From Amycolatopsis umgeniensis (GTDB taxonomy: Bacteria; Actinomycetota; Actinomycetes; Mycobacteriales; Pseudonocardiaceae), in assembly GCF_014205155.1 (NCBI RefSeq), contig NZ_JACHMX010000001.1:8184001-8248000 (forward strand): a stretch of 64,000 bases of DNA, read 5' to 3'. The notes under the pieces were generated by a model. The model saw only the letters and a program-made list of their open reading frames with translations, was not told the DNA's origin and ran no database searches. Shown here piece by piece: positions 38,261 to 57,400 of the stretch. Numbering within the stretch: the stretch's first letter is position 1; every line of letters begins with the position of its first letter. A program made the position numbers and the translations under genes.

Positions 38261-39166
38261 CTACCCGTGCTTGCGCAACGCTTCGATGACCGTGGTGAGT
38301 ACCGGTGATCTTTCCGCGCCGGCGCGGATGGCGGCGTAGATGTTGCGTTTGGGCGGGTTGTCGCGGACGGAGCGGACCACCAGGCCGTCACGGTGGCAGC
38401 GCACGCCGAGCCGGGGCACCAGGGCCACCCCGGCCCCGGCCGCGACGAGCGCTGTCACGCCTTCCCATTCGTTGCAGGTGTGGTGGATGTCCGGCATGAA
38501 ACCGGCGGTGGTGCAGCTGGCGATGGTCAGTTCCGCGCACGGTCCGTCCGGTACGGTCGTCACCCAGCGGTCGCCGGCGAATTCCTCCAGCGCCACCGGT
38601 CCTTCACGCTGTGCCAGGGGATGCGTGTCCGGCACCACGAAATCGAAGACGTCACTGGCCAGATGCGTCCGGTGATACCGGGAATCCCTGCGCGGCGGCG
38701 CGAGCCGGTAGTCGATCGCGATGATCAGGTCGAGGGTGCCCACGTCGAGGCTGGTGTAGCACTCGGGGGCTTCGACCTCGCTGATGTCGAGGCGCAGCCT
38801 GCTCGCCGTCCGCTGCAGGTCGGCGAGCGCGGGGGCGACCAGTCCGATGATCGCCGTGGAAAACGCCCCGATCGCGACCTGGCCGATCGGTTCCTCGTTG
38901 TAACTGGCCAGATCGGACCGTGCCGCCTCGATCTGGGCGTGAATGGTGGAGGCGTGTTCGAGCAGCACCATCGCCTGCCCGGTCAACCGGACTCCGCGTC
39001 CGTGCTTGCTCAGCAGCGGCACGCCGACCTGTCTGGCGAGGGTGGCCAATTGCTGGGACACCGCCGACGGAGTCAGGTGCAGGGCTTTGGCCGTGGCCAC
39101 GACCGTTCCGCGCTCCCGCATCTCCCGCAGGACCTGGAGCCGTCGCGCGTCAACGATCACGTCCAT
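38261..39166 (-). CDS. LysR-family transcriptional regulator
   Basis: This roughly 301-residue regulator has an N-terminal HTH (ARRLQVLREMRERGTVVA and LHLTPSAVSQQLATLARQVG) and a C-terminal periplasmic-binding-like effector domain. The start MDVIVDARRLQ is preferred, as family members begin just before this; a start 5 codons earlier is possible. It converges on the glycosyltransferase (9 bases between stops) and is the only regulator besides SoxR in this locus, so it may control the angucycline or the operon to its right. Effector and targets are unknown. Confidence 0.9.
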   Translation of the reverse strand: MDVIVDARRLQVLREMRERGTVVATAKALHLTPSAVSQQLATLARQVGVPLLSKHGRGVRLTGQAMVLLEHASTIHAQIEAARSDLASYNEEPIGQVAIGAFSTAIIGLVAPALADLQRTASRLRLDISEVEAPECYTSLDVGTLDLIIAIDYRLAPPRRDSRYHRTHLASDVFDFVVPDTHPLAQREGPVALEEFAGDRWVTTVPDGPCAELTIASCTTAGFMPDIHHTCNEWEGVTALVAAGAGVALVPRLGVRCHRDGLVVRSVRDNPPKRNIYAAIRAGAERSPVLTTVIEALRKHG

Positions 39167-39294
39167 GCTGGTGGATTCCATGAACGAAGCATAGAGAATT
39201 TCGAACATGGTTCGCGCGATTATCGTCCTGTTCTCGCCCGGCCGGAGCCAAATGTTGCGAATTCAGGAGAAAATTGCCCACCAAATCACGATTT

Positions 39295-39359: not shown

Positions 39360-40160
39360 TCAGCCGAGTGCGGCGTAAGACTCCGTCAGCGGTGTGAAGT
39401 CGCGGGCCGAAAGCCAGTCCGGCCGCGTGCCGCGGGAGAGGTCCACCTTGTTCTCCACGCTGTTGTAGGTGATCAGCAGCAGGCCGCGGTCGCGAGGGGA
39501 GATGTTCGGAACGGAGCTGTGCGGGATGTTGGCGTCGAACCACAGCACCGAGCCGCGCGGACCCTTCGGGGCGACCATGCCGTTGCGATCGACCAGTTCG
39601 CGGATCATGTCGATCTCGAGCGAGTACTTGAGGCTCGCGGTCAGGGTGCTTGCCCAGCCCTCGCCCTGGACCTCGGCCTCGATCATGCCGCCGTCGTGTC
39701 CTCCCGGCACGAGGATCAGCGGCCCGTTGAACTCCGTGACCTCGTCGAGGAAGAGCGCGGCCGACAACGCGCGGGGGGCGGGCATCCCGTCCTCGTGGTG
39801 CCAGAACGTGTAGTCCTGATGCCACTCCCACACCTCGCCCTTGAACGCCCGCTTCGCGTTGATCTTGAACTGGTGGACGTACACGTCGTCCTGCAGCAAC
39901 TGCTTGGCGATCGGGAGCAGGCGGGGCGAGCGGACGAGCTTGCCGAACACCTCGGAATAGAGATGGCAGCCATGGACGCCGCGGACGATGTCGGTGTCTT
40001 CCTCGACCGTGACGCGTTCGCCTCCCGCGGCGAACTCCTTCGCGGTTTCGTCCCGCACGATTTGCATCTCCTCTTCGGAGAAGACGCTTTCCTGAACGAG
40101 GTATCCGTTGGCCCGGTATTCGTCGACCTGGGCAGGGGATAGCGTGCTGTCGATTCCCAT
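39360..40160 (-). CDS. Phytanoyl-CoA dioxygenase (PhyH)-family 2-oxoglutarate/Fe(II) hydroxylase, EctD-like
   Basis: This 266-residue enzyme has the iron triad H-x-D in WEWHQDYTFWHHEDGMP (His114, Asp116) and the distal His214 in NIPHSSVPN, with Arg225 in SPRDRG for 2-oxoglutarate. The segment TFWHHEDGMPAPRALSAAL resembles ectoine and proline hydroxylases. The likely substrate is therefore an amino acid or cyclic amino acid derivative, hydroxylated at an unactivated carbon. Start MGIDSTLSP follows a GAAAGGAAA site. A 147-base AT-rich gap separates it from the upstream gene, so it may have its own promoter. An amino acid hydroxylase for the adjacent peptide or NRPS pathways is plausible. Confidence 0.88.
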   Translation of the reverse strand: MGIDSTLSPAQVDEYRANGYLVQESVFSEEEMQIVRDETAKEFAAGGERVTVEEDTDIVRGVHGCHLYSEVFGKLVRSPRLLPIAKQLLQDDVYVHQFKINAKRAFKGEVWEWHQDYTFWHHEDGMPAPRALSAALFLDEVTEFNGPLILVPGGHDGGMIEAEVQGEGWASTLTASLKYSLEIDMIRELVDRNGMVAPKGPRGSVLWFDANIPHSSVPNISPRDRGLLLITYNSVENKVDLSRGTRPDWLSARDFTPLTESYAALG

Positions 40161-40307
40161 GAGCCATTTCCTTTCGGAATGGTGATTGTCTTCGGCAATT
40201 TTATCGACGGGCCGAGACGTAATCAATCGCCGTGGTCGGCGAAACCGCTTAAAATCCTTAGCGATTCGGTTTAAGAACAGCCTGAACGATTCCGGGAAAA
40301 TCGTGGC
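40161..40307. promoter_or_regulatory. AT-rich intergenic region with a short inverted repeat, probable PhyH promoter
   Basis: This stretch has several runs of A/T unlike its neighbours and a 6-bp inverted repeat (CTTAAA 40248-40253, TTTAAG 40270-40275). It separates the permuted ATP-grasp gene from PhyH. A promoter for PhyH or an internal processing point is likely; no clear -10/-35 can be named. Confidence 0.4.
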
Positions 40308-41639
40308 TCACGGTTCGGCGAGCAGGCAGCTCAGCGTCGCGCTGATCTGGCCGCTGATGACTTCTTCGGTGTTCTCTGTCCACACGAACCGCGCGAAGCA
40401 GCCGGCCGGCCTTCCGCCGAAGGAGAACGGGCTGATCACCGAGTTGGCGGACACCCGCGTCACCGAGCCGGACTCGTGGAGCACGTCCACCGGGAACCGG
40501 ACGGCCTCGACGAACTCCTGCGCCACGAAGTCCTTTCTGGACAAAGCGAGCTGGACCGTTTGCGCCCATTCGTCGGGAGTGCTCCTGGCGCCGATCGTGA
40601 CCTCGCGCCCGGCCCAGCCGAAGGCGGTTTTGAGCACGAAACGTTCCTGGTACTTCAACAGCAGCTCGGGAAGGTCGTAGGACCGGTCTTGCCAGGTGGC
40701 CGTGCCGGGTCGCACCAACCTGGTCCAAGGCACGTAGCGATCGACGAAATCGCGCTCTTCCCGCGACATCCACGGCTGCCCCTCCGAGAGCAGGGCCAGC
40801 ATCTTCTTGCTGTGCACCATGCAATAGCTGTACGAGGGGTAGAGCCGGAAACCGGCGGCCTGCACCTCGCGCACCGGATCGAGGTCGATGCCGAGTTCGT
40901 CGGCGTACTCCTCGACGGTGAACTGCGCCATGCCGACCCGGTAACGCAACGCTCCTCCCGGCCCGATCAGCCGGTCGAGCTCGTCCGGCTCGAAGTGCTC
41001 GGCCAAGACCCCGTGCCGTCGCAGGAAATCCGCCTGCACGTCGAAGTACTTCGTGGAGTAGCCGGGGCCGAATTCCCGGCAGCTGCCCACGATCGCGGCG
41101 GCGGGCGGAACGCCGAGGTCCGAACAGATCTCGGTGAAGTACCGGGCGATCGACGCGTAGGCGTCCGCCCCGACGAAGGCCGGCCGTCCGGCACGCTGCC
41201 GGACGCGCTGCCACGCATGCTGGAAAAGCTGGAACTGCACCAGGCCGCCGACGGCGCCATTGGCGTTCAGTTCCACGAACTTCGGGCCGTCCTCAGCGAG
41301 GACCACGTCGGCCCTGCCCATGTCGGCGTCGTGGGCCATTTCGAATTCTTCGTCACCGGTCGCCAGGACGTTGTCGTCCATCTCCAAGGCGGCCAGCCGT
41401 CCCGCCCTGTCCGGGGCGAGGTGCCGCACCGCCCGGCGTTCCAGCTCGAGCAGCCGCGACATGGCGTCGAGGAGTTCCCGATACGACTCGCGGGGTACCA
41501 CGAACGGCTGGAGGGCGAACGGGAACCCGACGTAGGGGATACCGTCCAGCTCTTCGGTGAGAATGTCGGCCGTCTCCTTGTGGGACAGTCCGATCTCGGG
41601 CGGCTCTCTCAGATCACCGAACCAGGGTGCGCCGGTCAA
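40308..41639 (-). CDS. Circularly permuted ATP-grasp-like ligase, function unknown
   Basis: This 443-residue protein starts at TTG with a strong AAGGAGG 6 bases before. No named family is certain, but ATP-grasp features appear in permuted order. The metal-binding type motif FVELNANGAVGG (Glu123, Asn125) comes first and the ATP-binding loop FVLKTAFGWAGREVTIG (Lys337) comes about 210 residues later. In ordinary ATP-grasp proteins such as the one at 21029 the order is reversed. Permuted ATP-grasp enzymes include glutathionylspermidine synthase-like amide ligases. Its gene overlaps the GNAT-like gene by 26 bases, so the two products probably act together. I infer carboxylate-amine ligation; the substrate is not known. 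Confidence 0.6.
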   Translation of the reverse strand: MTGAPWFGDLREPPEIGLSHKETADILTEELDGIPYVGFPFALQPFVVPRESYRELLDAMSRLLELERRAVRHLAPDRAGRLAALEMDDNVLATGDEEFEMAHDADMGRADVVLAEDGPKFVELNANGAVGGLVQFQLFQHAWQRVRQRAGRPAFVGADAYASIARYFTEICSDLGVPPAAAIVGSCREFGPGYSTKYFDVQADFLRRHGVLAEHFEPDELDRLIGPGGALRYRVGMAQFTVEEYADELGIDLDPVREVQAAGFRLYPSYSYCMVHSKKMLALLSEGQPWMSREERDFVDRYVPWTRLVRPGTATWQDRSYDLPELLLKYQERFVLKTAFGWAGREVTIGARSTPDEWAQTVQLALSRKDFVAQEFVEAVRFPVDVLHESGSVTRVSANSVISPFSFGGRPAGCFARFVWTENTEEVISGQISATLSCLLAEP

Positions 41640-42843
41640 GGCCGTCCTCCTTTCCTGTCGGCGGTGTGCACGGGTCCGTGGGGAGCCCGGCGAGGAATTC
41701 GTCGAGGTGCACCGTGCGATGTGTCCGCACGTTGGCGCAGCGATAGGGGAGTCCCCTGCGGGCCGGGCGTTCGTCGTCGTGGAAGTAGACCGCGCGCAGT
41801 TCGTCGCCGCCGAGCAGTTCCATCACCGGATGGGCCACCAGGTAGTCCCGGACCGCGGGGGTGTCCCTGGTCGCCGAGTACCACAGTCGCAAGCCGCCGA
41901 GGTGGTTGGGCGCGGGGACGGCTTCAGGCTGGAACTTGCGTTTCCACTGGAAGATGCCGGTGCTCAGCCAGGCTTCGGCGCCGCCGAAATCCACCGCTTC
42001 GACGGCGTTGTCGTGGCACCACCGCAACAGCAGGTGGTAGAAGGCGCGGAAGGCCCCGCTGTCGTAGTGCTGCTTGTCGGCGTCGAGCACGCCGAGCAGG
42101 CGGACGAGCATCGTCTTCCGGCGCGCCTCCCAGCGGCACAACCCTCCGGCGACCCTTTCGCCATCGCCACTTCTGACGAAGAACAGGGCTCCCTGGCGGA
42201 ACAGGCATTCGTAAGCGACGTCCCTGGTCTCGCTCCTGGCGCGTTCGCCGTGCCGTGAACGCACCGTCGGCCGATGCATGCGTTCGTAGAAGTACTCGAA
42301 CGACGCGGCGTCCTCGGCCCGTTCCAGCCGCCAGTCGTGTTCGCGCTGGTTCGCCTTGAACCTCTCCAGTTCCCGTTTGGACACTCGTTTGGTCAGCTCG
42401 GCCTCGGTCGTGTCGACCCTCACCACGAGATGCCGCCGGAACGGCAGGATGAGCGCGGAATCCCGGGGCAGCCGTTCCGCCTCGGCCGGGGAACAGGCGA
42501 CGGCGACCAGGTCCGCGTGCGGGATGGCGGCCCCGGAGAGGAGTTTGGACCGGGGAACCCGGTAGTCGGTCGTGACGCCGGTGACCGGCCCCAGTTCGGC
42601 ACGCTGCCGGTCGAGCAACTGGTAGATGATCACGAAGCCGTCGGGGATCCCGGCGTACCCGAGGGAAAGCGCGCCGTCTCCGGAGCCGGGTTCGGGGTAG
42701 GAGACGAAGGCGGGGAGCCGGCGTCGCGCGGTGCTGTCGTACCAGGTCCGGTAGCCGGAGAACAGGGGATCGCTGCTGTGGTTCCAGGTGTAGCCGGCGA
42801 GCGCGCGCCAACGCCGCACCGCCGATGACTTCGGTTGCCTCAT
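41614..42843 (-). CDS. GNAT/BioF2-like (FemAB-related) acyl or aminoacyl transferase
   Basis: This is a 409-residue protein. The C-terminal half has SGAFRAFYHLLLRWCHDNAV and YSATRDTPAVRDYLVAHPV, with the fold pattern of the BioF2-like GNAT domain. Such proteins, like FemAB, often form amide bonds using acyl-CoA or aminoacyl-tRNA. The N-terminal half (LPAFVSYPEPGSGDGALSLG) is divergent. Start MRQPKSSAVRRW is chosen because the ATG overlaps the preceding MFS stop (ATGA). It is between an exporter and a permuted ATP-grasp enzyme, which suggests a short amide-linked product. The donor cannot be read from the sequence. Confidence 0.6.
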   Translation of the reverse strand: MRQPKSSAVRRWRALAGYTWNHSSDPLFSGYRTWYDSTARRRLPAFVSYPEPGSGDGALSLGYAGIPDGFVIIYQLLDRQRAELGPVTGVTTDYRVPRSKLLSGAAIPHADLVAVACSPAEAERLPRDSALILPFRRHLVVRVDTTEAELTKRVSKRELERFKANQREHDWRLERAEDAASFEYFYERMHRPTVRSRHGERARSETRDVAYECLFRQGALFFVRSGDGERVAGGLCRWEARRKTMLVRLLGVLDADKQHYDSGAFRAFYHLLLRWCHDNAVEAVDFGGAEAWLSTGIFQWKRKFQPEAVPAPNHLGGLRLWYSATRDTPAVRDYLVAHPVMELLGGDELRAVYFHDDERPARRGLPYRCANVRTHRTVHLDEFLAGLPTDPCTPPTGKEDGLDRRTLVR

Positions 42844-44111
42844 GAGAAACTCGATTCGTCTTGGTGGCCTGCCCGGACCGGTTGTTCCCGCTTGTCGCGC
42901 AACGCCCAGCGGCCGACCAGGACCGTGGGGGAGCCGGCGACGACGAAGAGCCCGGCGAGCAGGATCCAGCCGCCGATTCCCCAGTCCACGATCAGCATGG
43001 TCATCAGTGCCGGTGCCAGCATCTGGGCCGCCGAGGTGCCCGTGTTGTACATCCCTTGGTATTCGCCGTGTGCCTCGTCCTTGGTGAGGCCGACGCTGAG
43101 GCCCCATCCGCTCGCGACGTACAGCAGTTCGCCGAGCACGTGCACGATCCCGGCCAGCAGCAACAGGACGATCACGAGCCAGCCCGAGCCGTGGTAGGTC
43201 GCGGCGAACAAGCCGCAGCAGGCGGCGAGTACGAGTCCACAGTAGACACCCAGCCGGGCCGCCCCCGGCACGGTCGCGCCGGATCGGCTGACCCTGGTCT
43301 GCAGCGTGATGATGCCCACCGCGTTGATCGCCGCGATGGCCCCGGCGATCCACATCGGTGCCTCGGTGTGGTTGGCGATCCACAAGGGGATCGCGGCGCC
43401 GCCGACTCCCCAGCACAGCGCGAGCACCGCGCTCAGCACGGTCATGACCATGAACGGCCGGTCGCGCAGCACGAGGACCTTCCGTTTCCGGTTGATGTCG
43501 CGCAACGACTGCACATGGGGTACCCGGTGGACGACCAGCGCGAAGACGAGGCTGGCGAGGCCGTGCACGAGCACCAGGCCGATATAGGCGGCCCTGGTGT
43601 CCAGGTTCAGGACGAGGGCGCCCACCCCGGAGCCGACCGCGAAGCCCGCGTGGGCCAGCACCCGGATCAGCGCGATACTGCGTATCCGGTCCGGTTCCGG
43701 GGCCAGGCTGGAAACAAGGGCGAGCCGGATGCCGAGGATGCTCCGTTCCGCCGCCGTCGCCACGCAGGCGACGGCGAGGAAACCCCAGAACTCGTGCACC
43801 CAGATGTAGCCGAAGGTGGAGAGTCCCTGGATGGCGCCCAGGACGATGAGCACCTCGCGGCTGCCCACGCGGTCGGCGACGAAACCGACCACGCTCCCGG
43901 TCAGCATGCCGAAGACGCCGGCGGCGGTGAGCCCGATGCCGACCTGCGCGGCCGAGAGGCCGAGAGAGCGGGTGAAGAAGATGGCCCAGCACGTGTACCA
44001 CGCGCCGCCGCCGATGCTCAGGACGAGCGTGGCGGCACCGATCAACTCGGTGGCGCGGTTAGGCAACCGTAGGAATGCCAGCATGACCCTTGCCCGTGCT
44101 CGCGTCGCCAT
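42840..44111 (-). CDS. MFS transporter (12 TM)
   Basis: This 423-residue transporter has about 12 hydrophobic segments, for example LIGAATLVLSIGGGAWYTCW and VGIGLTAAGVFGMLTGSVVG, followed by the cytoplasmic loop FVADRVGSREVLIVLG (MFS motif A-like). It is not of the DHA2 type found beside soxR. Its stop overlaps the next ATG. It is the likely exporter of the product of the surrounding minus-strand operon, though uptake cannot be excluded. Confidence 0.85.
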   Translation of the reverse strand: MATRARARVMLAFLRLPNRATELIGAATLVLSIGGGAWYTCWAIFFTRSLGLSAAQVGIGLTAAGVFGMLTGSVVGFVADRVGSREVLIVLGAIQGLSTFGYIWVHEFWGFLAVACVATAAERSILGIRLALVSSLAPEPDRIRSIALIRVLAHAGFAVGSGVGALVLNLDTRAAYIGLVLVHGLASLVFALVVHRVPHVQSLRDINRKRKVLVLRDRPFMVMTVLSAVLALCWGVGGAAIPLWIANHTEAPMWIAGAIAAINAVGIITLQTRVSRSGATVPGAARLGVYCGLVLAACCGLFAATYHGSGWLVIVLLLLAGIVHVLGELLYVASGWGLSVGLTKDEAHGEYQGMYNTGTSAAQMLAPALMTMLIVDWGIGGWILLAGLFVVAGSPTVLVGRWALRDKREQPVRAGHQDESSFS

Positions 44112-44171
44112 CGGATCGACCTGCTGTTCGCTGCACGCGCACCTCCACGAAGTAGAAGATCTCCGAACGGT

Positions 44172-45335
44172 TCAGCTCGGGCACACGGTTTCGAGCAACA
44201 GGCGCACGCCGGCCTCGATGCACCGCTCGTCCACGTCGAAGCCGCCCTGGTGCAGGTCGGGCACCCGGGTCTTCTCGGGGCCGCGGACCCCGAGCCGCGC
44301 CATCGCGCCCGGAACGGCATCGAGATACCAGCCGAAATCCTCGCCGCCGAGCGATTGCTCGGTGGTGACGACCGAGCCTGGGCCGAGCGCCACGAGCGCG
44401 GCCTCACGCAGCCGTTCTGTGTGTTCGGGGTGATTCACCACCGGCGGGACGCCGCGGTGGTAAGTGGTGGTGTACTTGACGCAGTGGGCCGAGGCGATGG
44501 CGGAGACGAGTTCCTCGATCAGTTCCGGTGCCCGCTGCCAGGTCTGATGGTCGAGCGCCCGGACGATCCCCTCCAGTTCGCCCTCCTGCGGAATGATGTT
44601 GGGCGCCGAACCGGCGCTGACCCTGCCCCAGACCAGGCTGACGCCGCTGCGCGGATCGAGGCGGCGGCCGAGGGAGGCGGGCACGTCGGCGGCGATCTTG
44701 GCGAGGGCGTAGACGAGATCGGCGGTCAGATGCGGCCGGGCGGTGTGCCCGCCCGGCCCGGTCAGCTGGACCAGCAACCGATCGCAGGCCGCCGTGATCG
44801 GGCCGGACCGCAGCCCGACCTTGCCGACCGGGAGGTTCGGATCGCAGTGCAGCGCGTAGGCGGCCCGCACACCGTCGAGTTCACCCGCCTCGAGCATGGC
44901 ACGGGCCCCGCCCGGCATGACCTCCTCCGCGGGCTGGAACACGAGCCGGACAGCGCTGTCGAGCCGCTCTCGGCCGGCGAGCGCCAAGGCGACCCCGTAC
45001 AGCACGGTGGTGTGCACGTCGTGCCCGCAGGCGTGCGCCACTCCCGGAACGGTCGAGCGATACGGCACGTCCTTTTCGTCGGAAACCCCCAACGCGTCGA
45101 TGTCGGCGCGCAGCAGTACCTCCGGCGTCCCGTCGCCGACATCGCAGATCAGCCCTGTCCTGTTGGGCAGGGTTCTCGGCTCCAGCCCCAGCGCGACGAG
45201 CCGATCCCGCAGGAGGGCGGTGGTGCGATGCTCGGCCCACGACAGCTCGGGATGGCGGTGCAGATCCCGGCGAAAATCGATCAGCAGTCCTCGGTTTCCG
45301 CGTACCGGATCATTCGGATCCAAGATTTCCCCCAA
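44172..45335 (-). CDS. M20-family amidohydrolase (IAA-amino acid hydrolase-like)
   Basis: This 387-residue enzyme has RRDLHRHPELSWAEHRTT at the N-terminus, the metal site VAHACGHDVHTTVLYG, VFQPAEEVMPGGARAM and GGEDFGWYLDAVPGAM, all standard in M20D hydrolases. These cleave N-acyl or peptide amide bonds of amino acids. It starts the minus-strand operon, 60 bases before the transporter. It could release an amino acid precursor, trim a protecting group from an exported product, or confer self-protection by hydrolysis. Confidence 0.9.
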   Translation of the reverse strand: MGEILDPNDPVRGNRGLLIDFRRDLHRHPELSWAEHRTTALLRDRLVALGLEPRTLPNRTGLICDVGDGTPEVLLRADIDALGVSDEKDVPYRSTVPGVAHACGHDVHTTVLYGVALALAGRERLDSAVRLVFQPAEEVMPGGARAMLEAGELDGVRAAYALHCDPNLPVGKVGLRSGPITAACDRLLVQLTGPGGHTARPHLTADLVYALAKIAADVPASLGRRLDPRSGVSLVWGRVSAGSAPNIIPQEGELEGIVRALDHQTWQRAPELIEELVSAIASAHCVKYTTTYHRGVPPVVNHPEHTERLREAALVALGPGSVVTTEQSLGGEDFGWYLDAVPGAMARLGVRGPEKTRVPDLHQGGFDVDERCIEAGVRLLLETVCPS

Positions 45336-48436: not shown

Positions 48437-51400
48437 ATGACCGTGCGAGACACGGCGGCCACCACGGACGCCGAGAGAACCGCCGCCCTGCCGGAACTGT
48501 TCGCCGACAGGGTGCGCTCGGCCCCGGGCGCCGTCGCCGTCGACGGTGACGTCAGGCTGACCTACGCGGAACTCGCGGACCGGGCCGGACGGCTCGCCGC
48601 GCATCTGCGACGCCTGGGACTGCGAGCCGAGGACCGGGTCGCGGTGCTGCTCGAGCGATCCGCCGAACTGGTCGTGACGGAGTTGGCGATCGTGCTCGCG
48701 GGCGGCGTCTACGTGCCTCTCGACCGGCGGGCGCCGGACAGCAGGTTGCGGCTGACGCTGGCCGCGGCGGACGTGTCGGTGGTGGTGACCGATCAGCCCG
48801 AGCGGACGGCGATCATCCACAGTGGACTGATCGTCCCCGCCGGGGGACCGCTCCCGGAGCGGCAATCCGCGCTGCCGAGGGTGGACGCGGATCAGCTGGC
48901 CTACCTCATGCACACCTCGGGTTCGACCGGGAAGCCCAAGGGCGTCGCCGTGCGGCACCGCGACGTCGTGGCGCTGGCGGCCGACAGTCGTTTCACCGGA
49001 GGCGCGCACCGCCGCGTGCTGTTCCACTCGCCCGCCGCTTTCGACGCCTCGACCTATGAACTGTGGGTTCCGCTGCTCAACGGCGGGACGGTGGTGGTCG
49101 CGCCACCCGGCGACCTGGACGTGGAGGCGCTGAGGAACACCCTGACACGGCACCGGGTCACCGCGCTCTGGCTGACCGCGGGCCTGTTCCGGGTCGTCGC
49201 GCAGGAGGCGCCGGACTGCTTCCGCGGCGTGCGGGAGGTCTGGACCGGCGGCGACGTCGTCCCGGCCTCGGCGGTGCGGCGGGTGCTGCGCGGTTGCCCC
49301 GGCTTGACGGTGACCGACGGATACGGCCCGACCGAGACCACCACCTTCGCCACGGCCCACCCCATGTCCTCGGTGGACGGTGTTCCCGACGCCGTGCCGA
49401 TCGGACGTCCGCTCGACGGGGTTCGCGGGCATGTCCTGGACCCCGGGCTGGACCCGGTTCCGCCAGGTCAACCGGGGGAGTTGTTCCTCGCCGGGGCCGG
49501 TCTGGCACGGGGCTACTGGGGCAAGCCGGGTGCGACGGCGGAAAGGTTCGTCGCCGATCCGGCAGGCCCGCCCGGGGAGCGCATGTATCGCACCGGGGAT
49601 CTGGTGCGGCACGGCGAGAACGGCGAGCTGGAGTTCCTCGGCCGCGCCGACGATCAGGTCAAGGTCCGCGGCTTCCGCGTGGAACCGGGCGAGATCGAGT
49701 CGGTGCTCGCCGCCGCCCCCGGGGTGCAGGAGATCGTCGTCGTCGCCCGCGAGGAGCGGCCAGGGGTCAAACGGCTGGTCGCCTATGTCGTCGCCCGTCC
49801 GGACGAGGAACTCGGGGAGCTGGACCGGGTCGCCGCCGCGTCGCTGCCGGACTACATGGTGCCGTCGGCGTTCGTCGTGCTCGACGCGCTTCCGTTGAGC
49901 GCCAACGGGAAGGTCGACCGCCGGGCGCTGCCCGCGCCGCCGGAGGACCGGAGGGCCGGTGAGGCCGCGCCGCGCACGGACACCGAACGCACCGTGGCCC
50001 GGATCCTGGGGGACGTGCTCGGGGCGGCCGTCACCGCCACCGACGACGACTTCTTCGCCCTGGGCGGCGACTCGATCCTCGCCGTGCAGGCGTTGTCGCG
50101 GCTGCGCCGGACTTTCGGCGCGGACCTGTCGGCGCGGACGGTGTTCGACGCGCCGACGGTCGCGGAACTGGCGCGCCTGCTCGATGAGGCGCCTCGGAGC
50201 GAAGAAGCCGCGATCCCCACCACGACGCCGTCGGAGGTTCTCCCGCTTTCCCCGGCGCAACGGCGATTGTGGTTCCTCGACGAGCTGAACGGCGGCAGCG
50301 CGGAATACAACACCGCGGTCGGTGTCCGATTGGCGGGGCCGCTGGACGTCGATGGCCTGCGAGGCGCGCTGGCGGCACTCTGCGCCCGCCACGAGTCGCT
50401 GCGGACGACCTTCGATTCCGTCGAGGGCGAGGGTGTCCAGCGCGTCGCGGACACGGGCCGGATACCTCTGCGGATCGCGGAATCCGCCGCGGACGACGCC
50501 GCTTTGGCGGCTGAGCTGAGCGCGCCGTTCGATCTGCGCACCGGCCCGTTGACCAGGGCCACCCTTTTCCCGCAGGCGCCGGGCGAACACCTGCTCGTGC
50601 TGTGTCAGCACCACATCGTCACCGACGGCCGGTCGATCGGGGTCCTGACCGGCGAGCTGCTGGACTTCTACGCCGGGATCAGCCCGCCCGCCTTGCCGCT
50701 GGGGTACCGCGACTACACGCTCTGGCGGCAGCGGTCCGACGGCACGGATCAGCTGCGGTACTGGCGGGAGACGCTCGACGGGCTCGAGCCGCTCGCCTTC
50801 CCGGCCGACCGGCCGAGGCCGCCTCAGCGCACCACCGAGGGGGCCGTGCACCGCCACGACCTTCCCGCCGAGCTGGTCCGAGGCCTCACCGCCGCGGGAC
50901 GTCCGCACGGCGCGACACTGTTCATGACGCTGACCGCGGCGGTGCAAGTGCTCTTGTCGGCCTACAGCGGCCAGCGCGACATCGCTGTCGGCACCGCGGT
51001 CGCCGGCCGGGACCGGCCCGAATGGGAAGCGCTGACCGGATTCTTCGTCAACACCCTCGTCCTGCGCTCGCTGGTCGACAGCGCGCAGCCGTTCCCGGCC
51101 TTCCTCGCCGGATTCCGGGAGACGGTGCTGGAAGCGTTCGCGCACGGCGACGTCCCGTTCGACCGCGTCGTCGACGAGGTGCAGCCCGAACGCGATCCGT
51201 CGCGCACGCCGTTGGTGCAGGCCGTCGTCGTCCTGCAGAGCCCGCTCGTCCGGCCGCGTGAGGTCGCCGGCCTGCGGGTGAGCGAGTACGACCTGCCCCG
51301 CCCGTCGGCCAGGTTCGACCTGGTCGTCGAGTTCTGGCCGCGGCCCGACGGCCTGCGGGTCACCGTCGAATACGCCACCGCGCTCTTCGACGCCGCGACG

Positions 51401-54400
51401 ATCGCGCAGCTGACCACGAGCCTGGAAGCCCTCCTCACCGGGATCGCCGCCGACCCCGACCGTCCGGTGGGTGACCTCCCGCTGCTCACCGACGCCGATC
51501 GCCTGTCCCTGCCCTCCCCGGACGCCTCCCCGGCCATGACCATCACGCGTCTGTTCGACCATCACGCCGAGCGCCGTCCGCAGGCTCCCGCCGTGCTCTT
51601 CGGTGACGGCAGCCTCGGCTACGGCGAGCTGCGCGCCCAGGCCGACCGGCTCGCGGGAAGGCTGATCGCGCTCGGTGTGCGGCCGGAAGACCGGGTCGGC
51701 GTGCTGATGGACCGCTCGGCCGACCTGGTCGTGGCGGTACTGGGGATCCTCAAGGCGGGTGCCGCCTACCTCCCCTTGGACCTGCGTGCCCCGGCCGACC
51801 GCCTCCGACTGCTCCTCGACGGCACGACGGTCCTGCTCACCGACGAAACGTGGCAGGACACCGCCGCCACCGTCCACAACGGACACATCCTGACCCTGCC
51901 GGTCAGCGGGGCCGCGGCCACGGTCGTGGTCGACCCCGCGAGCCTGGCCTACGTCGAGTACACCTCGGGCTCGACAGGCTTGCCGAAGGGCGTGGCCGTC
52001 CGGCACACCGATGTGGTGGCGCTGGCCACCGACCCCCGGTTCACCGGCGGCGCCCACGAACGCGTACTGCTGCACTCGCCCCTGGCGTTCGACGCCTCCA
52101 CCTACGAACTCTGGGTTCCGCTCCTGAACGGCGGGGCCGTGGTCGTCGCGCCGCCGGGGGACGTCGACGCCGACATCGTCCGGGAACTGACCGCGCGGCA
52201 CGGCGTCACCGCGCTCTGGCTCACCGCCGGTCTGTTCCGGCTCTTCGCCGGTGACACGCCGGAGTGCTTCCGTGGTCTGCGGGAAGTCTGGACCGGCGGT
52301 GACGTCGTCCCGCCCGAGGCGGTGCGCCGGGTGCTGGACAGCTGCCCTGGTGTCGCGGTCGTCGACGGCTACGGACCGACAGAGACCACGACGTTCGCGA
52401 CCTCGTTCCGCATGGCGTCCGCCGACGCGGTCCCCGACGTGATCCCGATCGGGACCCCGCTCACCGGCATGCGTGTCTACGTACTCGACGAAGGCCTGCG
52501 CCCGGTACCTCGCGGCGCGCTCGGCGAGATCTGCGTGGCCGGTCCGGGACTCGCCAGGGGTTACGCCGCCCGGCCCGGTGCGACGGCCGATCGTTTCGTC
52601 GCCTGTCCCTACGGCGCTCCCGGCGAACGCATGTACCGCACCGGGGACCGGGGGCGATGGCGTGCCGACGGGACGCTCGAGTTCGCAGGCCGCGCCGACG
52701 ACCAGCTCAAGATCCGCGGCTTCCGGGTCGAACCCGCCGAGGTCGAACGCGCGCTGAGCGCCGAAACCGCGGTCGCGCAGGCGGTGGTGACCGCGCACGC
52801 CACGGGTGGCCGCAAACAGCTGGTCGCCTACGTCGTGGCGGTCGACGGATCCACAGTGGACACCGACGCGCTCAGGAACACCCTGAGTCACACTCTGCCG
52901 GACTATCTCGTGCCCTCGGCATTCGTCGTCCTCGAAGCGCTTCCGCTGAACGCCAACGGGAAGGTCGACAGGCGGGCCTTGCCGGAGCCGCGGTTCGACT
53001 CCGGCGGTGACCGGGTGGTCGCGCCGCGGACCGAGCGGGAAGCCGTGCTCGCGGGAATCTGGGCCGACGTCCTCGGCGTGGACCGTGTCGGCGTCGAGGA
53101 CAACTTCTTCGCCCTGGGCGGCGATTCGATCCTCAGCATCCAGGTCAGCGCCCGCGCCCGCCGGGTGGGGCTGGCGATCACCACGGCGGACCTGTTCCGC
53201 CATCAGACCATCGCCGCCCTCGCCCCGGCCTTGTCCGATGTCTCGGCGACGCCCGACCTCGGGCCCGTGTCCGGCGACGTCGTGCCGACGCCGATCCAGC
53301 GCTGGTTCTTCGACACGATCGCCGAACCCGGGCGTTTCGACCAGGCCATCGCGGTCGAGCTGGCCGAGGGCACCGACGAAACCGCGCTCGCCGCCGCCGT
53401 CGCCACGCTCGTCGAGCATCACGACGCGCTGCGCACGACGTTCACCCGCGAAGGCGAGCAGTGGCGGCTGCACATCACCGGTGCCGAAGACGGCCACTCA
53501 CTGCTGCGCTGGTCGCTGTCCGGCCCGTCCGGGCGGCGTGTCCTGCATCTGTCCGCCCATCATCTGGCCGTCGACGGGGTGTCCTGGCGGATCCTGCTCG
53601 AAGACCTCGACAGGGCGTATCGGCAGGCCGATCTCGGGCCGCGGACCACTTCGTTCCGCGAGTGGGCGGCGCGGCTGTCCGCGCATACGGAAGGCGGCGG
53701 CTTCGACGACGAGCTGGCGCACTGGCGCGCGATCCCCGCCGTCGCCCCGATCCCCGTCGACGGGGCAGGTGCCAACACGGTCGCCCGGACGCGGGCGGTC
53801 ACCGTCCGGCTGAGCGCGGGGGAGACGCTGTCCCTGCTGCGGCGGGTGCCCGAGGTCTACCGGACGCAGGTCAACGACGTCCTGCTGACCGCGCTCGGCC
53901 GGACACTGCGGGAGTGGACCGGTCAGGTGCCGGTGATCGATCTGGAAGGTCATGGCCGGGAGGAACTGTTCGACGGCGTCGATCTGTCGCGCACCGTCGG
54001 CTGGTTCACCAGTCTGTTCCCGGTGGCGCTGGACGTCCCGCACGAGTGGGGCGCGGCGCTCAAAGCCGTGAAGGAGCGGCTGCGGTCGGTCCCGCGGCGC
54101 GGCATCGGCTACGGCGCCCTGCGTTATCTGTCCGGCACGGCCCCGGCCGTCGACCCGCAGATCAGCTTCAACTACCTCGGACGGTTCGATCTGCCCGGCG
54201 AGCTGTACACCGGTTCGCACGGCGAACTGTCCTTGGCCGCCGACCCCGGCGGCGTCCGCCCGCATCTGCTCGACGTGGTCGGCCAGGTCACCGGCGACAC
54301 GCTGGAATTCACCTGGCACTACGCGGACGGCGTGCACGACGAAGCCACCGTGACCCGGTTGGCCGACGGCATGCTGGAGCACCTGCGTGGACTCCTCGAG

Positions 54401-57400
54401 CACTGCGCCGAACCCGGCGCGGGCGGGCGGACACCGTCGGACTTCCCCCTCGCCGGCCTCGATCAGTCCACTTTGGACGATCTCGTCGGCGACGGCCGGG
54501 ACGTCGAGGACCTCTACCCGCTGACCCCGATGCAGGCGGGCATGGTGTTCCACGGCCTGGCCCGGCCCGTCGACCGCAACTACTTCGAGCAGGTCTCCTT
54601 CGCCCTCGACGACGTCCCCGACCCGCACGCGCTCGGCGCGGCCTGGCAACGGGTGGTCGAGCGGACGCCGGTGCTGCGCAGCCAGGTCGTCTGGGAGGGC
54701 GTACCCCAGCCGCTGCAGCTCGTCCGGCGTTCCGTCGAGATCCCGGTGTCCTATCCGGACTGGTCCACTGTGGACGCGGAAGACGCGATGCGAAAGCGGC
54801 TGGCCGAAGACCTCGCCGACGGACTCGATCTGACCAGGGCCCCGCTGATGCGGCTGGTCATCGCCAAGGAGACCGCGACGTCGGTCCGGGTGATCTGGAC
54901 CTTCCACCACGTGCTGCTCGACGGCTGGAGCGTCTTCGGCGTCCTCTCCGACGTCCTCGCCCTGCTGCGTGGCGACAAGCCGCCGACGCGGCGTCCGTTC
55001 CGCGACTACGCCGCCTGGCTCGCCGCGCAGGACGACGCCGCCGCCGAAACCCACTGGCGGGCCGAACTCGCCGGGGTGACACCGACCCCGCTGCCCGGCG
55101 ATCGCGGAGCCCGCGCCCACTCGGCCAGCTCGTCCGCCCGTGTCCGGGTGGAGCTCGACGACGCCGCGACAGCCGGAGTCCAGGCCTTCGCGCGACGGCA
55201 TCACCTGACGCTCAACACGATCGTCCAGGGCGCCTGGGCCGTCCTGCTCGCGCGCTACAGCGGCGAGTCCGAGGTGTGCTTCGGCGCGACGGTGTCCGGC
55301 CGCCCGGTCGAACTGCCCGGTGCGGACGACATCCCCGGCCTGTTCATCAACACCCTCCCGGTGCGGGTGAAGCTCGACTCCGGGCGCGGTCTCGCCGACT
55401 GGCTGCGGGAACTGCAGGCGGCGCAGGCGGAATCGCGCCGGTTCGGCCACGTCGGCCTGCCGCGGTTGCAGTCCTGGAGCGACGACGGCGGCAGCCTGTT
55501 CGACAGCATCGTCGTCTTCGAGAACTACCCTGTCGCGGACCTCCCCGGGCTGCGCGACGTCCGCGCGGCCGAACGCACCAACTACCCGCTCGGTGTCGTC
55601 GCGTACCCGGGCAGGCGGCTGTCCTTGATGCTGACCCACGATCCCGAACTGATCGGCCCGGAGCTGGCCGAGAGGCTCGCGGGGCACCTCGAAACGCTGA
55701 TCCGCGGGTTCGCGGACGCACCGCACGAGCCCGTGACGCGGGTGCCGATGCTGGCCGAACCGGAGATCCGGCACCTGCTCCGCGAGCGCGACACGACCGC
55801 CGGGGAAGTGCCCGACGGGACGGTGCCCGGGCTGTTCGAGGCCCGCGCGCGCCGGAACCCCGAAGCCATCGCGCTGGTGGCAGGCGAGCGGACCATCACG
55901 TACAGGGAGCTCGACCTCCGGGCCAACCGGCTGGCGAACAGATTGCGCGAGCTCGGGGTCCGGGCCGAAGACCGGGTCGCGGTGCTGATGGACCGTTCGC
56001 CCGAACTCGTCGTCGCCGAGCTCGCGATCGTGAAGGCCGGCGGCGCCTACCTGCCGCTGGACCTGCGCGCACCCGTCGAGCGGTTGCGGCTGCTGCTGAG
56101 TGAGGCCGAGGCCGGCGTGGTCGTCACCGACCAGGCTTGGCTGTCCACCGCCGAAGAGATCCACCGCGGGGTGATCGTCACCGACGCGGGCGACTCTCCG
56201 GAGACTCCGCCCGCCGTGACGGTCGACGCCGAGCAACTCGCCTACGTCATCTACACCTCGGGTTCGACCGGGAAGCCGAAGGGCGTCGCCGCCCGGCATC
56301 GCGACGTCCTCGCCCTGGCGGCCGATCAGCGTTTCGCGGCCCACGACCGGGTCCTGCTGCACTCACCGCAGGCGTTCGACGCGTCGACGTACGAGCTGTG
56401 GGTGCCGCTGCTGAACGGCGGCACGGTCGTGCTGGCCCCGCCGGGCGACCTCGACGTCCACACCCTCGGCCGGGTGATCACCACGCACGACGTGACCGGT
56501 GTCTTCATGACGACCGGTCTGTTCCGGCTCGTCGCGCAGGAAGCGCCGGAGATGTTCGCCGGGGTCCGCGAGGTCTGGACCGGCGGAGACGCCGTGCCCG
56601 CCGTCGCGCTGCGCCGGGTGCGTGCCGCGTGCCCGCGCACCCTGGTCGCCGATGTCTACGGCCCCACCGAGACCACGACCTTCGCGACCGTGCACCCGCT
56701 GCCGGGCGAGGTGCCCGACGTCGTGCCGATCGGGGCTCCGCTGGACAACACCCGCGGCTACGTCCTCGACGGCGACCTGCGGCTCGCCCCGCCGGGCGCG
56801 CCCGGCGAACTGCACCTCGCCGGGGCCGGGCTCGCGCGCGGCTACCTCGGACGTCCCGGGCTGACCGCCGACCGGTTCGTCGCGGATCCGTACGGGCCGC
56901 CGGGGGAGCGGATGTACCGCACCGGCGACATCGTGCGCTGGAACGACGACGAGGCCCTCGAATTCGTCGGCCGGGTGGACGAACAGGTCAAGATCCGCGG
57001 CTTCCGCGTCGAACCGAGCGAGATCGAGGCCGCGCTGGGCGAGCATCCCGACGTCGAACAGGCGGCCGTGCTGGCTCGCGCGGACGGCGGCGTGAAACGA
57101 CTGGTCGCCTACGTCGTCGGAGAAACCGAAGGGCTCGGGGAGTTCCTGGGCCGGACGCTGCCGGACTACATGATCCCGGCCGCGTTCGTACGACTCGAGA
57201 AGTTCCCGGTCAACGTCAACGGGAAGCTCGACCGCACCGCGCTGCCCACCCCCGACTTCGGCGTCCGCGACCACGTGGCGCCGCGCACCGACCGCGAACG
57301 CGTGCTCACCGGCATCTGGGCCGAGGTACTGGGCGTCGGACGGGTCGGCGCGACCGACGACTTCTTCGAACTCGGCGGCGACTCGATCCTCAGCATCCAG

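What the first reader, a model, noticed from the sequence alone, without database searches (positions are those of the whole stretch)
39360..45335. Compact operon joining a permuted ATP-grasp enzyme, a GNAT/BioF2-like transferase, an M20 hydrolase, a PhyH hydroxylase and an exporter
The genes are tightly coupled (26-base and 4-base overlaps). Two different amide-forming folds, one ATP-grasp-like with its motifs in permuted order (Glu123/Asn125 before Lys337) and one GNAT-like, are combined with an amino acid-type hydroxylase and an exporter. Comparative work on amidoligases has described ATP-grasp/GNAT-fold combinations as small-peptide factories independent of the ribosome and of NRPSs, but I do not recognise this exact set. 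It may make a hydroxylated di- or tripeptide, or supply a building block to the neighbouring NRPS.
Basis: partly seen in the sequence, partly recalled or inferred. Interest (0 to 1): 0.78.

Follow-up and report, generated by a model that had tools for sequence, protein, structure and literature searches.

The report
Small-peptide operon beside proline hydroxylase
An actinomycete carries a compact set of genes that very probably builds and exports a small peptide with two unusual amide-forming enzymes instead of the usual giant assembly lines, next to an enzyme that probably hydroxylates proline; related enzyme pairs recur in other actinomycetes, and I found no product described for them.

Summary
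In detail: M20, MFS, GNAT, permuted ATP-grasp and PhyH genes lie on the minus strand where stated, with the 4- and 26-base overlaps. Correction: PhyH most likely starts at ATG 40160, 147 bases after the ATP-grasp gene, behind a weak promoter-like site, so it is not tightly coupled.

The ATP-grasp has the glutathione-synthetase/glutathionylspermidine-synthetase fold (nearest: YgiC, YjfC, homoglutathione synthetase) with invariant R109, D111, E123, N125, K278, K337. The GNAT is FemX-like; Sba18/Sbb17 tRNA-dependent peptide synthases and FemX tie as nearest folds, and K301 is invariant. PhyH is 80% identical to a solved enzyme of "uncultured bacterium esnapd13", named in print as a source of L-proline trans-hydroxylases.

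GNAT and ATP-grasp share 14 of 39 selected loci; MFS-GNAT-ATP-grasp has the same order in two other genera. M20 was in 0 of 39. Most GNAT loci (18 of 21) carry DUF6002, which this genome lacks.

Best reading: an NRPS-independent peptide factory (ATP-grasp plus probable aminoacyl-tRNA-dependent transferase) with exporter, possibly using hydroxyproline. Product, step order, tRNA use, and the membership of PhyH and M20 are unshown. New variant of a known kind.

The parts
44172..45335 (-). M20 amidohydrolase/carboxypeptidase-like hydrolase (387 aa with the TTG start listed; start not verified)
   Evidence: Pfam Peptidase_M20 123.6 bits, NCBIfam TIGR01891 323 bits over cut-off 153.75
42840..44111 (-). 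MFS transporter, presumed exporter (423 aa)
   Evidence: Pfam MFS_1 92.8 bits; 51-58% identical MFS in 7 of 39 loci, next upstream of GNAT in L031 and L033
41614..42843 (-). FemX-like GNAT-fold transferase, probable aminoacyl-tRNA-dependent amide-forming enzyme (409 aa); invariant K301
40308..41639 (-). Circularly permuted ATP-grasp ligase of the GSS/GspS type (443 aa, TTG start)
39360..40160 (-). PhyH Fe(II)/2-oxoglutarate dioxygenase, probable L-proline trans-hydroxylase (266 aa from ATG 40160; the longer ORF starts at TTG 40226); membership in the operon uncertain
   Evidence: 213 of 266 residues identical to P0161 of uncultured bacterium esnapd13 (83% over 95%), which is identical to PDB 7dt0; papers on that source
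40161..40307 (-). 147-base gap between ATP-grasp stop and PhyH ATG; promoter-like site at 40226-40198
   Evidence: weak (1 found in the region, 0.5 expected)
38261..39208 (-). LysR-type regulator downstream of PhyH, same strand; membership uncertain
   Evidence: Pfam LysR_substrate 134.9 bits
48437..64000 (+). Neighbouring NRPS gene (runs on to 65992 in window numbering), divergent from the operon; membership uncertain
   Evidence: AMP-binding, Condensation, PP-binding in the first 1692 residues

Best explanation
The MFS-GNAT-ATP-grasp genes are a small NRPS-independent peptide factory with its own exporter. Shown by computation: the ATP-grasp has the glutathione-synthetase/glutathionylspermidine-synthetase fold with matching invariant residues, and the GNAT has the FemX / tRNA-dependent peptide-synthase fold with an invariant lysine. 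Inferred: the ATP-grasp phosphorylates a carboxylate and joins it to an amine; the GNAT adds an aminoacyl group taken from an aminoacyl-tRNA to an amino group of the same small molecule; the MFS protein exports the product. The adjoining PhyH most likely makes trans-3- or trans-4-hydroxy-L-proline, offered as a building block; the M20 enzyme most likely cuts one amide bond of the product or of an N-acyl intermediate (activation, trimming or self-protection). The product would be a (hydroxy)prolyl di- or tripeptide-like compound. Order of steps, substrates, and the involvement of PhyH and M20 are inference.
For: Folds. Active-site columns: E123/N125 align with Gss E330/N332 and R109/D111 with Gss R316/D318, and with the same motif of YgiC; both hhalign scores are insignificant by themselves, but those columns are invariant in 43 of 43 rows. 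GNAT K301 is invariant in 46 of 46 rows and falls on the GINRFK segment of Sba18; FemX Lys305 and DhpH-C Lys329 are the reactive lysines named in the review PMC12945691 (passages). Recurrence: both genes in 14 of 39 selected loci, GNAT directly upstream of the ATP-grasp on the same strand (match gap 27-159 bases) in 9 of those 14; order MFS-GNAT-ATP-grasp also in L031 (Kibdelosporangium) and L033 (Actinacidiphila). In 10 of 39 loci the ATP-grasp instead sits with BioF-, HpcH-, OCD- and MaoC-like genes, functions that resemble ktmA, B, C and F of the ketomemicin cluster, whose ligase is also an ATP-grasp enzyme (PMC11943689 passages). PhyH; its close orthologues sit with a proline-racemase/4-hydroxyproline-epimerase-family gene. 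Precedent for an Fe/2OG enzyme plus a GSS-type ATP-grasp without NRPS: E-64, PMC12568646 (passages).
Against: PhyH has a 147-base gap and a promoter-like site; its orthologues at 76-80% are in a different cluster (L065-L067), and more distant PhyH relatives lie beside or inside NRPS genes (L068, L069). The nearest ATP-grasp/GNAT relatives (P0003/P0062, 78/77%, equal contig length 26393) have no PhyH row of that contig length among the 120 of 1353 listed (contig may be truncated). M20 was in 0 of 39 other loci. 18 of 21 GNAT loci carry DUF6002, which this genome lacks, and 7 of 21 GNAT loci show no ATP-grasp. On the tree the GNAT linkage is not of single origin (4 changes). tRNA use is unproven: a GNAT fold could use acyl-CoA. 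Fold similarity does not show activity.
Confidence: 0.55

Rival explanations
1. The operon is a precursor/tailoring arm of the neighbouring NRPS cluster: PhyH makes hydroxyproline or another hydroxy amino acid, and the ligases make or attach an unusual building block that the NRPS incorporates; the MFS exports the NRPS product.
For: Two NRPS genes start 3.1 kb away (48437-65992, 66003-80834). In L068, L076 and L077 GNAT/DUF6002 genes share the 20 kb stretch with NRPS genes. A PhyH relative (about 50%) lies next to an NRPS gene in L068 and is fused to a condensation-adenylation-carrier module in L069. I raised this rival from 0.20 to 0.22.
Against: Opposite strands, with a beta-lactamase-fold gene and a small ORF between. 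Of nine A-domain signatures read in part, none starts like the proline type DVQ (positions and type recalled; one NRPS gene of the window, 11559-16409, gave no signature). L031 and L033, with the same triad order, have no gene of the NRPS-containing cluster c2 in their 21 kb.
Confidence: 0.22
2. PhyH (perhaps with LysR) is an independent proline-hydroxylation unit, and the peptide operon is M20-MFS-GNAT-ATP-grasp only, making a peptide without hydroxyproline.
For: 147-base gap, promoter-like site; close PhyH orthologues in another, self-contained cluster (L065-L067); no PhyH row of contig length 26393 for the 78% sister in the part of the list shown.
Against: Same strand, next gene, no terminator-like site on the minus strand in the gap; the proline-racemase, DadA-like, M19, EamA and CysK genes of L065-L067 have no member in the window (clusters c38-c42), so PhyH has no partner set of that kind here.
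Confidence: 0.3
3. Polyamine- or glutathione-type conjugation: the GSS/GspS-like enzyme makes a house-keeping conjugate (as YgiC, Gss), the GNAT acetylates it and the M20 enzyme removes it.
For: Highest fold scores are to YgiC, YjfC and homoglutathione synthetase, with Gss just below.
Against: Patchy distribution: ATP-grasp matches at E <= 1e-40 in 7 of 394 class genomes, own included; company of biosynthetic genes in the loci examined; GNAT fold nearer to tRNA-dependent transferases than to acetyltransferases.
Confidence: 0.08

Closest known systems
E-64 pathway (Cp1A Fe/2OG epoxidase, Cp1B GSS-type ATP-grasp, Cp1D amide bond synthetase; PMC12568646, start of abstract and passages)
   Different: Fungal; second amide by an ANL-type enzyme, not a GNAT; the oxygenase epoxidises fumarate; no sequence relationship tested
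[quoted passage not shown] Sba18/Sbb17 in PDB)
   Same: Fold and an invariant lysine near the end of the domain; used in small natural products
   Different: Sequence similarity marginal (E 0.0065 at best); partner here is a GSS-type ATP-grasp; tRNA use untested
Ketomemicin-type pseudopeptide clusters (PMC11943689, passages)
   Same: ATP-grasp ligase, non-NRPS; 10 of 39 loci with our ATP-grasp family carry BioF-, HpcH-, MaoC- and OCD-like genes
   Different: That context has no GNAT; the window has none of those genes; sequences of ktmA-F, the ligase KtmD included, were not compared
L-proline trans-hydroxylase of uncultured bacterium esnapd13 (PDB 7dt0, 7dzz, 7e01 sets)
   Same: 80% identity over 266 residues to the PhyH
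   Different: Used in print as a stand-alone biocatalyst; here next to peptide-ligase genes
ATP-grasp/GNAT amidoligase combinations predicted by Iyer, Aravind and colleagues (2009 paper recalled, not seen; later paper PMC2922099, passages)
   Same: The idea of small peptide factories from ATP-grasp and Fem-type GNAT ligases
   Different: The passages that I saw do not describe this gene set

Membership tests
Circularly permuted (GSS/GspS-type) ATP-grasp ligases | Whole-length GSS/GspS fold | tested here: met
Circularly permuted (GSS/GspS-type) ATP-grasp ligases | Metal/phosphate residues (R-x-D ... E-x-N) before the ATP lysines | tested here: met
   R109, D111, E123, N125, K278, K337 invariant in 43 of 43; the first four coincide with Gss 316/318/330/332 (score insignificant). 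Roles of these residues recalled
Circularly permuted (GSS/GspS-type) ATP-grasp ligases | ATP-dependent amide bond formation | not testable with these tools
   needs enzyme assay
FemX-like aminoacyl-tRNA-dependent transferases | FemX/tRNA-dependent GNAT fold | tested here: met
FemX-like aminoacyl-tRNA-dependent transferases | Reactive lysine (FemX Lys305, DhpH-C Lys329) | tested here: inconclusive
   K301 in 46 of 46 rows, aligned in the Sba18 FK segment; superposition on FemX Lys305 not done
FemX-like aminoacyl-tRNA-dependent transferases | Uses aminoacyl-tRNA | not testable with these tools
   needs assay
L-proline trans-hydroxylases (esnapd13 type) | Close sequence identity to a characterised enzyme | tested here: inconclusive
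   Identity is high (213 of 266 to P0161 = 7dt0), but no call ties this very sequence to the assayed enzyme: the link is the source name in PMC8061225, PMC7936316, PMC12670320, PMC9367115 and a recalled structure paper not held
L-proline trans-hydroxylases (esnapd13 type) | Hydroxylates free L-proline | not testable with these tools
   needs assay; PMC8061225 names both trans-3 and trans-4 enzymes from that source
M20 amidohydrolases (TIGR01891) | Score over curated cut-off | tested here: met
   323 bits versus 153.75
DUF6002-GNAT cluster class seen in relatives | DUF6002 (PF19465) gene in the genome | tested here: not met
   0 matches in G000 while the three comparison genomes G163, G148, G061 rang
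Ketomemicin-type clusters | BioF, HpcH, MaoC, OCD genes beside the ligase | tested here: not met
   none in the window at E <= 1e-12 over 30% of the query

The most novel reading that the evidence does not exclude
The FemX-like GNAT and the GSS-type permuted ATP-grasp are the two-enzyme core of a widespread, unnamed class of ribosome- and NRPS-independent peptide pathways in actinomycetes, one bond paid for by ATP and one by aminoacyl-tRNA; the accessory genes (DUF6002 with PanD or a sulfopyruvate-decarboxylase-like pair, dihydroxyphenylglycine-type genes, or here proline hydroxylase and M20) set the building block, so the window encodes a (hydroxy)prolyl member of that class.
Probability: 0.35. 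Interest if true: 0.72.

Novelty: new variant of a known kind. Interest (0 to 1): 0.55.

Why it matters
Peptide natural products are searched for mainly by NRPS and RiPP signatures. A recurring GSS-type ATP-grasp plus FemX-type GNAT pair would be a handle for a class of small peptides that such searches may miss, and the enzymes would be stand-alone amide-bond catalysts. The PhyH identification makes one candidate building block, hydroxyproline, directly testable.

Tried and rejected
Sequence searches of the ATP-grasp and GNAT against PDB sequences found nothing at E <= 1. A profile search with A1 gave four designed PPR chains and one alpha-solenoid chain (E down to 6.7e-11, matched over about 70 columns), which I regard as spurious because they match one short stretch outside the motifs E123/N125 and K278/K337, plus one D-Ala-D-Ala ligase at E 0.69. 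No Pfam/NCBIfam family above cut-off for either protein. Rfam found nothing in the window. Papers naming the PDB codes of the PhyH relatives were not found; a recalled DOI was not held. DUF6002/PF19465 is in no held paper. Searches for GriE/EctD-type papers gave nothing on this enzyme's substrate (listings only). Rejected: PhyH as ectoine hydroxylase (189.8 bits against a cut-off of 336.5); PhyH as leucine hydroxylase (219 bits to GriE against 507 to the esnapd13 enzyme). The NRPS signatures were read by text patterns made from recalled positions, so no substrate was called. The 39 loci are selected, not sampled: 9 and 30 stretches around matches; two ATP-grasp genomes with E <= 1e-40 (G244, G220) and a second match in G167 were not fetched as long stretches. 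In the tree I left out L079 (ATP-grasp match in two pieces) and L071 (same region as L032), labelled L032 as GNAT-linked from the GNAT 14 kb away seen in L071, and labelled P0003 as GNAT-linked because its contig length equals that of P0062.
Full report
Setting. The window is 8184001-8248000 of a single 9.23 Mb contig. Its family code f1 also holds genomes G163 and G009, whose match positions agree with the named records of Kibdelosporangium banguiense and Amycolatopsis arida, so I take it for a Pseudonocardiaceae member (inference).

Observation. All five minus-strand genes are open frames at the stated places and are picked by a frame-composition gene caller, in four cases with later starts of its own. 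Overlaps are as stated: 4 bases MFS/GNAT and 26 bases GNAT/ATP-grasp. M20 and MFS are 60 bases apart. The PhyH start at TTG 40226 is doubtful: that base begins a promoter-like site (1 found, 0.5 expected), an ATG at 40160 follows GAAAGGAA, and the solved relative starts level with that ATG. The gap to the ATP-grasp gene is then 147 bases.

ATP-grasp. No sequence hit in PDB, sub-threshold Pfam hits only, 60 database hits including itself. The AlphaFold2 model has pLDDT 92.5. Foldseek lists soybean homoglutathione synthetase and human glutathione synthetase first (E about 1e-16). VIA-align gives YgiC 27.8, YjfC 27.2 and homoglutathione synthetase 27.1 (tied), Gss 26.6, human GSS 26.1, Cp1B of E-64 biosynthesis 23.3; a putative gamma-glutamylcysteine synthetase is at 11.8 and ordinary ATP-grasp enzymes at 8.9 or less. 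R109, D111, E123, N125, K278 and K337 are invariant in 43 of 43 rows (43 of the 60 hits were aligned). Alignment to E. coli Gss puts the first four on R316, D318, E330 and N332, and to YgiC on the equivalent motif; both alignment scores are insignificant, the coincidence of columns is the point.

GNAT. Model pLDDT 93.6. VIA-align has Sba18 14.0, Sbb17 13.9 and 13.8 and FemX 6snr 13.3 (tied), FemX 4ii9 12.5, MprF-type lipid aminoacylases 9.4-11.6, acetyltransferases 10.8 or less. A profile of 46 of the 99 hits finds Sba18 as best PDB sequence, E 0.0065, and Sbb17 at 0.28, with the conserved FQWKRR segment on NRFKLG of Sba18. K301 is invariant in 46 of 46. The review PMC12945691 (passages) names FemX Lys305 and DhpH-C Lys329 as reactive lysines of this enzyme kind. 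tRNA use is therefore likely but inferred.

PhyH. It scores 507 bits to PDB sets 7dzz/7e01 (503 to 7dt0) and 219 to the leucine hydroxylase GriE. The database protein P0161, from 'uncultured bacterium esnapd13', is identical to 7dt0; ours matches it at 213 of 266 residues (83% over 95%). Papers name that source for trans-4-hydroxylation (PMC7936316, PMC12670320, PMC9367115) and for both trans-3 and trans-4 (PMC8061225) of L-proline (passages). I recall a structure paper on an L-proline trans-3/4-hydroxylase that would fit the PDB entries; the DOI I tried was not held. At the one internal site where the PDB sets differ, ours has Asn like 7dzz. Of 297 family genomes, 6 match at E <= 1e-70, own included; the three at 76-80% (G132, G242, G141) share, beside PhyH, six gene families by clustering: by the annotation of the L067 members these are DadA-like, M19 dipeptidase, SDR, proline racemase/4-hydroxyproline epimerase family, EamA-like and cysteine synthase; L067 also has a CysE-like gene. 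This fits hydroxyproline metabolism. The other two, at 50-51%, lie next to an NRPS gene (L068) or within an NRPS gene as a C-A-carrier-PhyH fusion (L069).

M20. Above the TIGR01891 cut-off. No match at E <= 1e-12 over 30% of its length in any of 39 other loci.

Neighbourhoods. I examined 39 selected loci (L031-L039, L065-L094; L032 and L071 overlap, so 38 distinct regions). GNAT in 21, ATP-grasp in 28, both in 14; in 9 of 14 the GNAT is directly upstream on the same strand with a match gap of 27-159 bases; of the other five, L034 and L035 have the order reversed with DUF6002 between, L071 and L073 are on opposite strands, L084 has a LanB-like gene between. MFS-GNAT-ATP-grasp in this order recurs in L031 and L033. 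Separately, 12 of the 59 non-self ATP-grasp hits have the same longest-contig length as a GNAT hit (counted by eye; circumstantial). DUF6002 accompanies GNAT in 18 of 21 loci. PanD is in 5 and a sulfopyruvate-decarboxylase alpha/beta-like pair in 8 loci, never together (the pair scores below its curated cut-offs, PanD above). Asparagine-synthase-like genes are in 13, luciferase-like oxidoreductases in 9, dihydroxyphenylglycine-type genes in 3. In 10 of 39 loci, none with GNAT, the ATP-grasp lies with BioF, HpcH, OCD, MaoC and DmpG-like genes, a set resembling four of the six ketomemicin functions listed in PMC11943689. The own genome has no DUF6002 while three comparison genomes rang.

Frequency. 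ATP-grasp matches: 56 of 297 family genomes at E <= 1e-3 (17 at E <= 1e-40, my count), 7 of 394 class genomes at E <= 1e-40. GNAT matches: 13 of 297 family genomes at E <= 1e-25. Own genome included in each.

Tree. In a 33-row tree (rows left out and label choices are told under Tried and rejected) the window protein groups with P0003 (99/100) in a nine-row clade, all labelled GNAT-linked (94/85, not starred). The GNAT label needs 4 changes (3 without the remote rows) against 11.2 for shuffled labels.

Mechanism. An ATP-paid amide bond and a probably tRNA-paid amide bond on one small molecule, exported by the MFS protein. Whether hydroxyproline enters it and what M20 cuts are open. Supply to the NRPS is possible: relatives of GNAT/DUF6002 and of PhyH do lie with NRPS genes. 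Against it, nine A-domain signatures read in part include none starting like the proline type (rule and type recalled; two of the nine were printed without their first residues and read by eye; gene 11559-16409 gave none).

Literature. DUF6002 and PF19465 occur in no held paper. A search for tRNA-dependent peptide, ATP-grasp, GNAT, biosynthetic gene cluster and FemX (at least four of five terms) listed two papers, seen here in passages; these passages do not describe this gene set. My statement that the set is undescribed rests on those searches and passages only.

Noticed in passing
L031, L033-L035, L037, L068, L070-L073, L075-L079, L081, L082, L084: A recurrent gene-cluster class for which I found no paper: DUF6002 with the FemX-like GNAT in 18 of 21 GNAT loci, often with asparagine-synthase-like, luciferase-like and MFS genes.
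   Followed up: partly
L031, L033, L073, L077, L082 (PanD); L034, L070, L071, L072, L075, L078, L079, L084 (pair): PanD (5 loci) and a sulfopyruvate-decarboxylase alpha/beta-like pair (8 loci) never occur together in the 39 loci, as if they were alternative sources of one building block.
   Followed up: partly
DUF6002 proteins, e.g. L032:18914-20230: Conserved NP...T.K and S.NK..ALR segments recall fold-type II PLP enzymes of the threonine-synthase kind (my reading of motifs; alignment of 18 match pieces; no family search supports it).
   Followed up: no
L038, L039, L086-L092, L094: The ATP-grasp family sits in a conserved ketomemicin-like gene set (BioF, HpcH, OCD, MaoC, DmpG) without GNAT.
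   Followed up: partly
L036, L080, L081: GNAT and ATP-grasp near type III PKS and enoyl-CoA-hydratase-like genes of the dihydroxyphenylglycine kind.
   Followed up: partly
L065, L066, L067: Close PhyH orthologues in a shared gene set with proline racemase family, DadA-like, M19 dipeptidase, SDR, EamA-like and CysK-like genes.
   Followed up: partly
L069:9588-13493: NRPS ORF with condensation, AMP-binding, carrier and a C-terminal PhyH domain in one frame, the PhyH part about 51% identical to the window's.
   Followed up: partly
48437-64000 and beyond (to 80834 in window numbering): Two NRPS genes; the five A domains of the first have closely similar signatures, three of them the same at the eight positions read.
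   Followed up: partly
L079:8857-10133: The ATP-grasp match is in two pieces (also seen as L017 of the same genome); described only.
   Followed up: no
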